NCBI GenBank assembly: GCA_008933995.1
Contig: WARS01000011.1
Coordinates: forward strand, 10,817,516 to 10,881,515
Source: Datnioides undecimradiatus
Lineage: Eukaryota; Chordata; Actinopteri; Lobotiformes; Datnioididae
DNA: 64,000 bases
Direction of reading: 5' to 3'
The notes below the pieces were generated by a model, which ran no database searches, was not told the DNA's origin, and worked only from the letters and a program-made list of their open reading frames with translations. Positions 28,406-33,800 of this stretch are shown here, piece by piece (within the stretch, counting starts at the first letter, position 1; each line of letters begins with the position of its first letter). Both the position numbers and the translations under genes were made by a program.

Positions 28406-28780
28406 GACCATTCTGCAACAAACCCAAAATCCCACTATGGCCAAATGACTGGATTTGTACTATGAGTAAAAATGTATGTTTATACTGAATACTAAAGGAG
28501 TTTTGTGCAACTAATTGTTGTATATTTAATGTACACACCTACATGCCAAGTGAAATTAACTATGTATTGAACTACTCTATGGGCTACCTTGCAGGCCTGC
28601 CTGAAAAGCCATGTTTTTCTAATGATCAAGTTATTGAATCATCATAAATGCTGCTCGACCTGTGTGCTTGATATTCCCTCTTTACCGTGTCCTTATTGCG
28701 CCAGATTACAATCTTTGTTAGCTTATGTGAAATAAACAGTCTCGTGAATCAAAAGTTTGAACGACATGGTGTCAATTATT
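28406..28780 (+). terminator. map2k1 3' UTR and polyadenylation signal
   Basis: Non-coding tail after the TGA stop. A canonical AATAAA lies at 28731-28736. The segment from about 28516 onward recurs near 30525 with a second AATAAA at 30717-30722, so the 3' end of map2k1 is itself part of a tandem duplication. The cleavage site is not visible. Confidence 0.7.
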
Positions 28781-28990
28781 TATTTCAACCAAATGACTTG
28801 TGCCTTGAGTTTAGCAGGCGCTGCTTTCTTTCCAGGCTTTGTCTTGGGTTTATTCTTGAGGATGGCGTGCCTCAAGTTAATTAGAGGATTCTTCTTGAGT
28901 ACTCTGCAGTTGATCTTTCTGCAATGACAATAAAACTAAATATTAGTGATAAGTTGTGTTAATCTGCATGTTTGTAAATAACTTTTCGTT

Positions 28991-29058
28991 CTGCTCAGGA
29001 CTTCCATCAAAATCAGGGTTCAGAAACACGGACCTGAAGTGGAACATCATCATAGTTG
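28991..29058 (-). ncRNA. SNORD18-like C/D snoRNA, duplicated copy 1
   Basis: Minus-strand match to the snoRNA in rpl4 intron 9, with about 2 differences in about 69 nt. C box ATGATGA (29053-29047), D' box CTGA (29022-29019) and D box CTGA (28998-28995) are intact, as is the guide core GGTCCGTGTTT upstream of D'. The SNORD18 family guides 2'-O-methylation of 28S rRNA. The host here is the rpl4 remnant, so whether it is expressed is open. Confidence 0.75.
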
Positions 29059-29242
29059 ACAAACTAAACCAAGACAAAAGAACTGAGCAATTGCTTACTT
29101 AGGTGTAGGAAGTGCTCTCTGGATCTCATTGTTCTTTAGGATCCTGCTCAGGTCTGTTTGTAATCCTGGGGGAAAAAAAAGTGACACCAATTATTAAATT
29201 TCTCATGTTGGAACACATGAAAATGTTCGTCTTTTGATACAC

Positions 29243-29313
29243 AAACTCAGAACTTCGTTAAATATCACAGAATTTCAAAAACACGGACCATGAAGTGGAA
29301 GCTCATCACTGTA
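29243..29313 (-). ncRNA. SNORD18-like C/D snoRNA, duplicated copy 2
   Basis: Identical over about 70 nt to the snoRNA in rpl4 intron 8. C box GTGATGA (29309-29303), D box CTGA (29250-29247) and guide core GGTCCGTGTTT are retained; the internal D' position reads TTGA, as in the parent. Flanking exon remnants are decayed. Confidence 0.75.
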
Positions 29314-29568
29314 ACACGAACAACAAAAGTTATACTTGTGCAAGTCAAGCCAAACCAGAAAGAGAAGTTTAACTACCTTCTTGACTGCATTGAGCTTTTT
29401 CAGCAGGAGCACTGCCTCCTTCCATCGCCTTGGAGCCTCTTGTCTTCAACCACCAGTGGGACCTCAGATTTCCTCAATGTAGTGACCTAACGGAAAATAA
29501 AGATTATGTCAATCAAATGTATTGACACACAAACGTATGACTGCCAAAGGCTACAGTGTTACCAGAAC

Positions 29569-29670
29569 TTGCTCAGAATTTCATATACATCAATTCACTG
29601 TGACAGTTTTAAGACAGCAGGCAACTGTCACTGCTCACAGGATCAGATGCAAATTACACCATCATGGCAA
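29569..29670 (-). ncRNA. SNORD16-like C/D snoRNA, duplicated copy
   Basis: Match to the snoRNA in rpl4 intron 5 with 3 substitutions in about 130 nt including flanks. C box ATGATGG (29665-29659) and D box CTGA (29576-29573) are intact. One change (plus-strand T at 29648, C at 32683 in the parent) turns the guide from GTAATTTGCGT to GTAATTTGCAT, 2 nt upstream of the D' box CTGA. Confidence 0.75.
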
Positions 29671-30200
29671 GTCAAGGGTTAAGCTGCACTTTAACATGTC
29701 TAAGAATATTTAGTGATAAAAATATTTATATTAACAGCTGTCCTCTGCAAATATTGTTTTTGGAGCTTACTTTTGAGTAAGTGCAGGGAAAGCAGAACCA
29801 GACAAGATGGGCACAACACCTCTGGGTTGCATTGATCCTGTGAGGCCAGCTTTTGGGGCATGTCCCAGCAGGTTGGTATTCTGCAGATGAATGCCTTCAG
29901 AAAAAAAAGAGCACAAGAATTAAACACACACCAAGTTTGAAGTCACGTTACAGCTTTGAAATTCATTAAGTTTGACAACTCATGCCACATGACAAAACAA
30001 TTAAAGGTGCTGCAGAAGGAAAGCAGCTACTTTGTTATCATCCAAGTATACATAAGACTTAAGAGTTTACATTAATACATACCTGGAATATTTTTCACAG
30101 CTTTGATGAGACAAAAATCTTGGTTGTAGATGATCCTCTTCGATGAATCAATCAGCAGTTCTTCATCTTACTCTTACCAATGTCTCTCCAGGTTATGCTT

Positions 30201-30524
30201 CACTCCACCTGTGCTGTAGCCATCTTGGTTTTGTTTTGCTTTCCCATCCTTACTTCAGTTGAGCAAAGTATGTACTCATCTGATAACCCTAAAACAGAGA
30301 TTCTGGAAAAAGCTGCCACTCCCACTCTACTCATACAATGTGGATATTAACACCATCAAATAAGCACCATTGCTCTCAAGCAGCCTGTCACACCTACCTG
30401 GTGTGCAGTAATGTAAGCACACTTTCTACAACATAAATCCCATATCCCATGGTCAACTAATGACTGAGTGCATACTCTGGTTAAAGAGTAGGGTTACACT
30501 GAACAGAAGTCACACAGTCAGTGG
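30201..30524. other. Junction between the duplication units
   Basis: Between the last rpl4 exon remnant and the start of the intact unit. I see no exon or recognisable repeat here; it may be decayed remains of another unit. Confidence 0.5.
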
Positions 30525-30818
30525 TTGTTTAATGTACATACTTGCATGCCAAAAGGAAATAATGTATTGAACTGTTCTACGGGCTACCTTGCAGGCCTGC
30601 CTGAAAAGCCATGTTTTTCTAATGATCAAGATCATTGAATGATCATAAATGCTACTCAACCTGTGTGCTTTAAATTTCCTTTTACCTTGTGTCCTTGCAG
30701 GATTGTTCGTTTGTGAAATAAATAGTATAAAAATTAAAATTCTGAATGACGGGTCTGACTCATTCAATTGAATCAACTGATTTATTTCTGAACTCCAGGC
30801 TGTAAAAGATTTATTGAT

Positions 30819-33800
30819 TTATGCCTTGGGTTTGGCAGGTGCTCCTTTCTTTCCAGGCTTCTTCTTGGGCTTCAGCATCTTAGCCTTGATCTATTGAAGA
30901 AAAAAAAAAAAAAGGATTTCAGAGTCACAATCAAAAATTACACTATGCACTTGTGCCCTCAGCTTTAGTATTTTAGGTTCTTACCGCAGGGTCATGCTTG
31001 AGGATGGCATGACGTCTTGCTGTCTTGGCGTAAGGGTTCAGTTTGAGCATTATCCTCAAGTTCTTCAGAGGATTCTTCTTCAGGACTCTGCGGTTGATCT
31101 TCTTGCTGTAATGACAATTTAACCCAGATTAAACAATGTGAACTTGTGCTCAACATAAATTTTGTGATCAACTTTTCATTCTCAGGACTTCCATAAAAAT
31201 CAGGATTCAGAAACACGGACCTGAAGTGGAACATCATCATAGTTGACAAGCTTAAACAAATGACAAAACAACTGAGCAAGTGCTTACTTAGGTGTACGAA
31301 GTGCTTTCTGGATCTCTTCGCTCTTCAGGATCCTGCTCAGGTCTGTGTTGGTCATCTTGTGCATGGGCAGGCTGTAATACAAGGCATCAAGAATTGAAAC
31401 ACTCATGTTGTAAAGTATGAAAATACACTGATGACTCTTAATGTACAAACTCAGAACTTCGTTAAATATCACAGAATTTCAAAAACACGGACCATGAAGT
31501 GGAAGCTCATCACTGTAATGTGATCACCAGTTTTACTTGAGCTACAGCGAGACTTCTTAATAAATACTCACTTGTAGTCCACCTTCAGGGAGGCAGGTTT
31601 ACGCCAGGTGCCATACAGCTCATCCAGCTTGCGGAAAGCACTCTCCGTCCAGATGCAGAAGCGTCCAACGTGACCACCAGGGGCAAGCCTCAGGAGGTTC
31701 AGCTTGTTCACGTTCTGCAGTGTGATGCCTTTGTAATACAGCACAATAATTTAACAATCACCAGATGGAGCATTTCACTTATTTTAAGTAATTGAAAGTG
31801 TACTTATTCAAAACTTTAATAATGCTGATACTAAAATAAGTTAATGTTCTGATCTCTATTTACCCAACAGCTGAATCTCACACTTGACCAAATAACTCAC
31901 CTGGGATATTTCTGAAGGCTTTGGTGACACCAGCGTCTTGGTTGTAGATGATGCATGGGCCTCTGCGTTGGATGCGTCTGCGATTCCTCATCTTACCCTT
32001 TCCAGCACGCATGCGCTGAGAGGCGTAGACCTGAATTGATAAAGTTGTGTGGTAATTAATGGAAGATTGATTGGCCAGCAACATCTAATATTGGTAAACA
32101 CTAACACAATGACTAGCTGAGACCAAAGACAAGACTGATGTTGGTGTTGTGCAGGTACATCTGTCGGGGTTAGTAAGATGTGATCAGATTAGTTAAGCAG
32201 TGGGCACCTACAGCTAAACAAGGTAGTGAGAGGAGGTCAATGAATAATTTTTGTAGGGGTGTGTGTCCTATCTGTTGGTAACACAGTCTAAAAAGATGAT
32301 TCATTCGAGTGTGTTGCTGAACTTTCTCCACTTTTATCATTTCAACGTCAAATCATGTGTTCCCTGAATGGTGCAGAGTCAAACCAAAACGCCTTACCTT
32401 CTTGATGTCATTCCAGGCTTTGAGCTTTTTCAGCAGGAGCACTGCCTCCTTCGTCTTCTTGTAACCCTCAACTTTGTCTTCAACCACCAGTGGGACCTCA
32501 GGGATTTCCTCAATGCGGTGTCCTAACAGTAAATAAAGATTATGTCAATCAAATGTATTGACAAACTTCTTGTGAATGTCAGAGGCTACAGTGTTACCAG
32601 AACTTGCTCAGAATTTGATATACATCAATTCCCTGTGACAGTTTTAAGACAGCAGGCAACTGTCACTGCTCACAGGATCAGACGCAAATTACACCATCAT
32701 GGCAAGTCAAGGGTTAAGCTGCACTGAAAGTTATGAGCTTCTGTACATACCTTTGAAAGGCTTTATTGACATATACAAATATTTCTGGCGCTTACCTTTG
32801 GACATCACAAGTGCAGGGATGGCAGAGGCAGCCACAGCAGAGCAGATGGCATAACGCTTCTGGGTCGTGTTGATCCTGCGGTGCCAGCGGCGCCAGGTTT
32901 TGGTGGGGGCAAACATGCGACCTCCACGACACATCTAGATTAAAGTCAAGGAGGTCTGACAATTAACAAATTTACCCATGTACTAAATTACCCAACAACC
33001 ACTGAGTGTGTCAGGCATCTGAGATATACAGATACAGTGCACAATTGCACAAAATTAGAAGGGAGAAAGAAACATGAAATAAGGATACATTTCCAAAAGC
33101 ACCCTGGCCAGAGCGATGAGTACCACCACCCCTCACACGAGGGATACGGGCCACAGCTCTTCCAGTACCCCATGACTCTGCACTGGTCTGGTGGCCTGAA
33201 ATGAACACATATACACACTAAAATTACAAACAAAATAATTCAGATTTATGCTGAGCAATGGAGTTCAGGAACTTTAAAAACTGTGATGTAAACTTTGATC
33301 AACGTGAGTTGGGGAGAGACATATGCACTCACCTGCCAGTTCACTGACTGCATAAGGCTGGCGGTTGTTCTTGCGCATGTTGGTGTGAACAAAATTCACA
33401 ACATCAGGGCGAATTGGAGCCTTGAACACCGCAGGCATGACAACATTTTTGCCTGCGGATTCTCCTTTCTCGGAGTAAACCGAGATCAAGGGTCGGGCAC
33501 AGGCCTAAAGGAAGCAAAAAGGAAACCACTGAACCTCCTCAGGCAGATACATAATAGTGATTACGTGAAGGTAATATAGATTTTAGGAGTACAGCGGGTG
33601 TTTAAGAAAAAGAAATTCTACAAGATAGCTGTCCTAAGCACAAAAAATAACTTATACATCTAGCATGTGGGAGCAGGCTGACCACCAATGCCGAAATCAA
33701 ACGTATACAACTCAGTGCCACTGGTATGTCGAAATATGGGCACATCACACTATACATAATAGCAGAAGAGTCTGTTATTTAAAAATTGCGTTTTAGGAAA

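What the first reader, a model, noticed from the sequence alone, without database searches (positions are those of the whole stretch)
28516..32934. Decayed rpl4 duplicate that keeps its snoRNAs intact
A tandem copy of the map2k1 3' end plus rpl4 exons has lost its coding ability, with fused, truncated and missing exons. Its three C/D snoRNAs differ from the parents by about 2, 0 and 3 bases, with all C and D boxes retained. Neighbouring exon remnants differ at many more positions. That is the opposite of the usual pattern, where exons outlast introns, and suggests either selection on extra snoRNA dose (a dead ribosomal protein copy kept as snoRNA host) or local gene conversion.
Basis: partly seen in the sequence, partly recalled or inferred. 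Interest (0 to 1): 0.75.

Follow-up and report, generated by a model that had tools for sequence, protein, structure and literature searches.

The report
Dead rpl4 copy keeping its snoRNAs
Next to what is probably a fish's working ribosomal-protein gene rpl4 lies a broken partial copy whose protein-coding parts have decayed while the three small nucleolar RNAs in its introns are nearly unchanged and still have usable splice signals, so it looks like a non-coding snoRNA gene being born from a dead protein gene.

Summary
On the minus strand, 28760-30179 is a partial rpl4 copy (no match for E1-E3 and E7, E9/E10 fused, E6 out of order) beside an intact rpl4; an orphan map2k1 last exon/3'UTR lies at about 30363-30730. 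Each unit holds one SNORD16 and two SNORD18, the only ones that whole-genome searches found. The snoRNAs differ at 6 of 240 sites; codon positions 1+2 of neighbouring exon remnants, the fair control because the parent is constrained there too, at 20 of 201; other intron at 67 of 313. Sliding the snoRNA mask along the alignment gives its minimum at or within 2 columns of zero, which favours purifying selection over gene conversion. The copy keeps four splice donors (ranks 1, 3, 6, 8 of 99 GTs), an acceptor for each snoRNA intron and a poly(A) signal. Best reading: a UHG/GAS5-like non-coding snoRNA host, caught early. Not shown: transcription, mature snoRNA, presence in related fish. Cautions: SNORD18a alone is not significant, the SNORD16 copy has a guide change, divergence is patchy, and a 50-nt identical run in the map2k1 3'UTR is unexplained.

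The parts
28760..28918 (-). Fused remnant of rpl4 exons 9+10 (intron 9 and the E9 donor lost) with 3' end; AATAAA on the minus strand at 28779; acceptor TTGTCATTGCAG
28991..29058 (-). SNORD18 copy 'a' (intron 8 equivalent)
   Evidence: Rfam RF00093 57.8 bits, gathering 41; 3/68 substitutions from parent, 2 between C and D boxes, plus one gap at the edge of the Rfam match
29099..29165 (-). Exon 8 remnant; donor identical to parent; 5' part deleted, with a different acceptor (TTTTTTTTCCCCCAG) just before it
29243..29314 (-). SNORD18 copy 'b'
   Evidence: Rfam RF00093 62.5 bits; 0/72 differences from parent while the 20 columns on either side hold 8 and 6
29377..29486 (-). Exon 5 remnant with four deletions and one insertion; donor GTAGTT and the parental acceptor position kept
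29570..29669 (-). SNORD16 copy (intron 4 equivalent); terminal stem identical to parent
   Evidence: Rfam RF00138 89.6 bits; 3/100 differences; stem
29771..29894 (-). Exon 4 remnant, strongly decayed; donor GTAAGC kept; acceptor candidates before 29894 or 29880
30081..30179 (-). Exon 6 remnant, out of order (upstream of exon 4); donor GTATGT scores best of 99 GTs in the copy
30363..30730 (+). Orphan duplicate of map2k1 last exon and 3'UTR, with AATAAA at 30717 and a 50-nt run (30581-30630) identical to 28581-28630
30819..34246 (-). Intact parent rpl4 (10 exons) with SNORD18 at 31178-31245 and 31447-31518 and SNORD16 at 32605-32704
27370..28740 (+). Functional map2k1 3' end (convergent with rpl4); AATAAA at 28731
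   Evidence: one exon matches MEK1 (108 bits) slightly better than MEK2 (105.7)

Best explanation
A tandem duplication copied the convergent map2k1/rpl4 3' ends. The extra rpl4 piece has no recognisable first three exons and its coding parts have decayed (shown). Its three intronic C/D snoRNAs were kept by purifying selection, so the piece now serves as a non-coding snoRNA host, in the pattern of UHG and GAS5 (inferred from the divergence pattern). It would work so: Pol II transcribes the minus strand, either by read-through from rpl4, whose AATAAA signals lie about 1.1 kb upstream of the SNORD16 copy, or from a promoter of its own near 30200 (neither shown). The retained splice sites remove the three introns, and snoRNPs assemble 72-83 nt upstream of each acceptor and are trimmed out. 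The products add to the pool that guides methylation at the SNORD16 site in 18S rRNA and the SNORD18 site in 28S rRNA (inferred).
For: snoRNA 6/240 against constrained sites of nearby exons 20/201 (two-sided P = 0.001) and intron 67/313 (P = 3e-12); stratified against local exon sites z = -3.3, one-sided P = 4e-4; same direction in 6 of 6 alignment settings. Rotating the snoRNA mask over the 892 columns of blocks B and C, 3 of 891 shifts reach the observed 7 events (6 substitutions, 1 edge gap), all within 2 columns of zero; 0 of 200,000 random placements over all blocks do. No gap lies between a C and a D box, against 21 gap openings in exon and intron of blocks B and C, one of them at a block end. 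C and D boxes equal the parent's, and the 28S-complementary stretch of both SNORD18 is unchanged (target letters recalled). The four donors that can be followed (E4, E5, E6, E8) are kept, ranks 3, 8, 1, 6 of 99 GTs. snoRNA-to-acceptor distance is 83/77/72 nt in the copy and 82/75/72 in the parent, although one acceptor is a different AG. Genome searches found no SNORD16/18 outside this locus.
Against: No expression data and no related genome could be examined. SNORD18a alone is not significant against exon sites (3 found, 6.8 expected, P = 0.09); SNORD16 against all E5 sites gives two-sided P = 0.05. The SNORD18a copy has a weaker terminal stem (-3.6 against -6.8 kcal/mol) and its flanks pair no better than shuffles (907 and 958 of 1000 reach it). 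The SNORD16 copy has a change in its 18S guide, 2 nt before D', shortening the duplex. Identical runs also exist outside snoRNAs: 50 nt in the map2k1 3'UTR, 33 nt in intron 4, 32 and 27 nt in exon 5. The E9 donor is lost and the E4 and E8 acceptors are not the parental ones; splice-site retention alone could be chance.
Confidence: 0.6

Rival explanations
1. Gene conversion from the parent, 2-3 kb away, has repeatedly overwritten parts of the copy, snoRNAs among them; the copy has no function.
For: Divergence is patchy: map2k1 last exon and near UTR 65% identity with gaps, codon positions 1+2 of E4+E6 33/154, of E5 8/72, of E8-E10 12/129. Non-snoRNA identical runs of 50, 33, 32 and 27 nt. The SNORD16 tract runs 22 nt past its 3' end and 21 nt past its 5' end without a difference.
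Against: Differences resume within 2 columns of both ends of SNORD18b and within 8 and 4 columns of the ends of SNORD18a; SNORD18b has 0/72 inside and 14/40 in the adjoining columns. The joint minimum is at or next to zero shift. Conversion has no reason to stop at these ends. Introns differ at 52/199 in block B and 15/114 in block C.
Confidence: 0.17
2. A neutral duplication in which the snoRNAs look conserved by chance.
For: Each snoRNA is short; SNORD18a alone is not significant. Box and stem retention is expected for a while after any duplication.
Against: Joint tests. Intron divergence of 21% over blocks B and C is not very recent.
Confidence: 0.13
3. The copy is kept for another reason, for example a short peptide with the uL4 C-terminal tail, or a long map2k1 3'UTR isoform ending at the orphan AATAAA, and the snoRNAs come along.
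For: A putative spliced transcript has a 100-codon open frame (84 codons from ATG) carrying a shortened uL4 tail. The orphan 3'UTR keeps AATAAA and a 50-nt identical run. Near-exon codon positions 1+2 differ less (20/201) than position 3 (17/102), which constraint on the parent alone would also give, so it does not decide.
Against: Exon remnants hold 27 gap openings over blocks B-E. Neither idea predicts snoRNA-shaped conservation.
Confidence: 0.1

Closest known systems
Non-coding snoRNA host genes (UHG/SNHG1, GAS5, U17HG)
   Same: snoRNAs in introns are the conserved part while the rest drifts; the chicken gas5-like host compared with human shows this (PMC2653536, passages)
   Different: Here the source is recognisable: a tandem partial copy of a ribosomal protein gene beside its parent. 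TOP promoter and transcription are not shown.
RPL4 as host of U16 and U18 (SNORD16, SNORD18)
   Same: Same families in the same gene; chicken RPL4 is listed with U16 in introns 1 and 3 and U18 in introns 2, 5 and 6 (PMC2653536, passages)
   Different: The second set sits in a decayed copy of the gene, not in further introns of the working gene.
Cis-duplicated snoRNA paralogues
   Same: Intragenic duplication is named as the main route of new snoRNA copies in chicken, with similar cases in other vertebrates (PMC2653536, passages)
   Different: There within one host gene; here a multi-exon block whose host part is dead.
snoRNA pseudogenes
   Same: Duplicated snoRNAs; without advantage they are expected to degenerate (model in PMC10234308, passages)
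   Different: Box scores here are 3, 4, 3 (SNORD16, 18b, 18a) against 3, 4, 2 in the parents; hardly any degeneration.

Membership tests
SNORD16 (RF00138) | Covariance-model score above gathering | tested here: met
   89.6 bits against 45
SNORD16 (RF00138) | Guide complementary to 18S rRNA before D' | tested here: inconclusive
   copy has lost the parent's 11-pair stretch: by the letters 9 pairs remain, then a mismatch 2 nt before D' (rRNA letters recalled, genome look-up unanswered)
SNORD18 (RF00093) | Score above gathering, boxes C and D, 28S guide | tested here: met
   62.5 and 57.8 bits against 41; C and D boxes and guide unchanged from parent (28S letters recalled)
Non-coding snoRNA host gene | snoRNAs in introns with usable splice sites | tested here: met
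   a donor and an acceptor lie about each of the three snoRNAs, judged by sequence only
Non-coding snoRNA host gene | No conserved protein | tested here: inconclusive
   putative transcript has stops in every frame and lost exons, but an 84-codon frame from ATG remains
Non-coding snoRNA host gene | Transcribed and processed to mature snoRNA | not testable with these tools
   no RNA data
Non-coding snoRNA host gene | 5'-TOP/TCT promoter | not tested
   no start site known; only a recalled YY1-like motif at 30219 located
Unprocessed pseudogene of rpl4 | Intron-bearing copy without intact frame | tested here: met

The most novel reading that the evidence does not exclude
A snapshot of how non-coding snoRNA host genes are born: a partial ribosomal-protein gene duplicate lost its coding role and is kept by selection only for its intronic snoRNAs and their splicing, doubling the genome's recognised SNORD16/SNORD18 loci.
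Probability: 0.5. Interest if true: 0.72.

Novelty: new variant of a known kind. Interest (0 to 1): 0.52.

Why it matters
How non-coding snoRNA hosts such as UHG and GAS5 arise is hard to see, because their exons are poorly conserved (recalled; for gas5 see PMC2653536). Here parent and decaying copy lie side by side, so the order of loss (coding frame first, snoRNAs and most of their splice sites last) can be read directly. If the copy is expressed, it is also a natural test of whether extra C/D snoRNA dose is selected.

Tried and rejected
Rejected: assembly duplicate or allele (intron divergence 67/313 in blocks B and C). Rejected: a wider repeat family (a genome search with 29000-29700 gives only itself and the two parent segments; 30140-30800 gives only itself and map2k1; that search skips very common words). 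Rejected as evidence: covariation of terminal stems; SNORD18b flanks pair about as well as the parent's through different bases, but shuffles reach the copy's value in 54 of 1000 at 20 nt and 159 of 1000 at 30 nt. No structure signal in the identical map2k1 3'UTR run or in the intron 4 tract. A first transcript model ended exon 5 two bases early; one search repeats it with the corrected end. Literature: eight searches on snoRNA hosts, duplication and pseudogenes listed no report, by title and abstract start, of a decayed ribosomal-protein copy kept as snoRNA host. Several lists were cut (20 of 92, 15 of 97, 20 of 33 and 12 of 22 papers) and one search found none at all, so this is weak evidence of absence. 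Searches were on U16/U18 processing and guide pairing. Of papers, only listings and passages of PMC10234308, PMC2653536, PMC5282483, PMC8162545, PMC12218551 and PMC6954239 were seen.
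Full report
The window comes from a 581-Mb assembly in 497 contigs. It is probably a bony fish: the best uL4 match in the PDB is 7oya, which I recall as zebrafish; the tool names no organism. map2k1 (plus strand; one exon matches MEK1 at 108 bits and MEK2 at 105.7) and rpl4 (minus strand, 30819-34246, 369 codons, intact) converge. Between them lies an extra unit: a partial rpl4 copy at 28760-30179 on the minus strand and an orphan map2k1 last exon plus 3'UTR at about 30363-30730 on the plus strand. The order map2k1 end, rpl4 remnant, map2k1 remnant, rpl4 is what a tandem duplication across the convergent 3' ends would leave (inference).

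Anatomy of the copy, in rpl4 direction: E6 remnant (out of order), E4, intron with SNORD16, E5, intron with SNORD18b, E8, intron with SNORD18a, fused E9/E10, AATAAA at 28779. E7 and E1-E3 have no match. The putative spliced RNA, with splice sites chosen by eye, has stops in every frame; the longest open stretch is 100 codons, 84 from an ATG, and carries a shortened uL4 tail. Without RNA data that transcript is a model only.

snoRNAs: Rfam gives six matches in the window above gathering. In the whole genome, SNORD18 matches four places and SNORD16 two, all in this locus (only the best 60 of 106,343 and 52 of 91,175 first-look candidates were scored, so weaker copies could be missed). The dead copy thus holds half of the recognised loci of both families.

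Divergence. Where the parent is constrained, parent-copy differences arise mainly in the copy, so the fair control for a snoRNA is not intron (both sides drift) but constrained exon sites. Near exons (E5, E8-E10), codon positions 1+2: 20/201; position 3: 17/102; introns of blocks B and C: 67/313; snoRNAs: 6/240. With E4 and E6 the exon figure is 53/355. At the near-exon rate 24 differences were expected in the snoRNAs. Fisher P = 0.001 two-sided; stratified by block, one-sided P = 4e-4, made up of SNORD18 against E8-E10 P = 0.01 and SNORD16 against E5 P = 0.03; one-sided P between 2e-5 and 0.007 in six alignment settings. By snoRNA: SNORD18b 0 of 72 (7.2 expected), SNORD16 3 of 100 (10.0 expected), SNORD18a 3 of 68 (6.8 expected, not significant). 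Against all E5 sites rather than positions 1+2, SNORD16 gives two-sided P = 0.05.

Selection or conversion. Rotating the snoRNA mask over the 892 columns of the two main blocks, the observed 7 events (6 substitutions and 1 gap at an Rfam edge) are the minimum; 3 of 891 shifts tie, all within 2 columns of zero, and every other shift with 11 or fewer events lies within 9 columns of zero. None of 200,000 random placements over all blocks reached it. For SNORD18b the adjoining 20 columns on each side have 8 and 6 differences, against 0 inside; for SNORD18a 5 and 3; for SNORD16 0 and 0, because its identical tract runs 22 and 21 nt past the ends and includes the terminal stem. So SNORD16 alone would fit conversion; the SNORD18 pair fits it poorly. 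Patchy divergence across the unit and a 50-nt identical run in the map2k1 3'UTR mean that some older conversion, or another conserved element, cannot be excluded.

Processing signals. The four donors that can be followed (E4, E5, E6, E8) are kept and rank 3, 8, 1 and 6 among 99 GTs of the copy's minus strand (donor matrix recalled); the E9 donor is lost with intron 9. Each snoRNA intron has an acceptor. That of E8 is a different AG with a long pyrimidine tract, yet SNORD18b lies 77 nt from it against 75 in the parent; the other distances are 83 against 82 and 72 against 72. Distance to the branch point is reported as crucial for a small number of well-studied intronic C/D snoRNAs (PMC10234308, passage). 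Box scores after that paper's recipe, with mature ends taken as 5 nt beyond the boxes, are 3, 4, 3 in the copy and 3, 4, 2 in the parent (SNORD16, 18b, 18a); terminal stems are -11.8, -5.3, -3.6 against -11.8, -3.6, -6.8 kcal/mol. The SNORD16 copy has a base change 2 nt before D', which by the letters leaves 9 pairs with 18S. [quoted passage not shown] that the core spans nt 3-11 before the box is recalled.

Mechanism. Work on U16 and U18 is titled as showing that the C and D boxes control processing and stability (title in the reference list of PMC5282483); that U16 can be cut from unspliced RNA by XendoU in Xenopus is recalled. Either splicing or such cutting could free the copy's snoRNAs from rpl4 read-through RNA. 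Zebrafish snoRNA hosts carry dual TCT/YR initiation (PMC6954239, abstract and passages); whether the copy has a promoter is unknown.

Verdict. It is best filed as a candidate non-coding snoRNA host derived from a dead ribosomal-protein gene copy. Transcription and phylogenetic depth are the missing steps.

Noticed in passing
28581-28630 and 30581-30630: 50-nt identical run between map2k1's own 3'UTR and its orphan duplicate, with no Rfam match and no folding signal; the orphan also keeps AATAAA at 30717, so a long map2k1 3'UTR isoform is possible.
   Followed up: partly
29495-29527 and 32531-32563: 33-nt identical run in intron 4 downstream of SNORD16, holding a 7-bp inverted repeat; no significant fold z-score.
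   Followed up: partly
30081-30179: Exon 6 remnant lies upstream of exon 4, so the copy was rearranged or comes from more than one duplication.
   Followed up: partly
30219-30228: YY1-like motif GCCATCTTGG (motif recalled) just upstream of the copy's first recognisable exon; possible promoter element (located).
   Followed up: no
41610-43415 and 46236-46511: Minus-strand stretches matching glycosyl hydrolase family 1 and SNAPC5, which with map2k1 and rpl4 resemble the human 15q22 neighbourhood (recalled).
   Followed up: no
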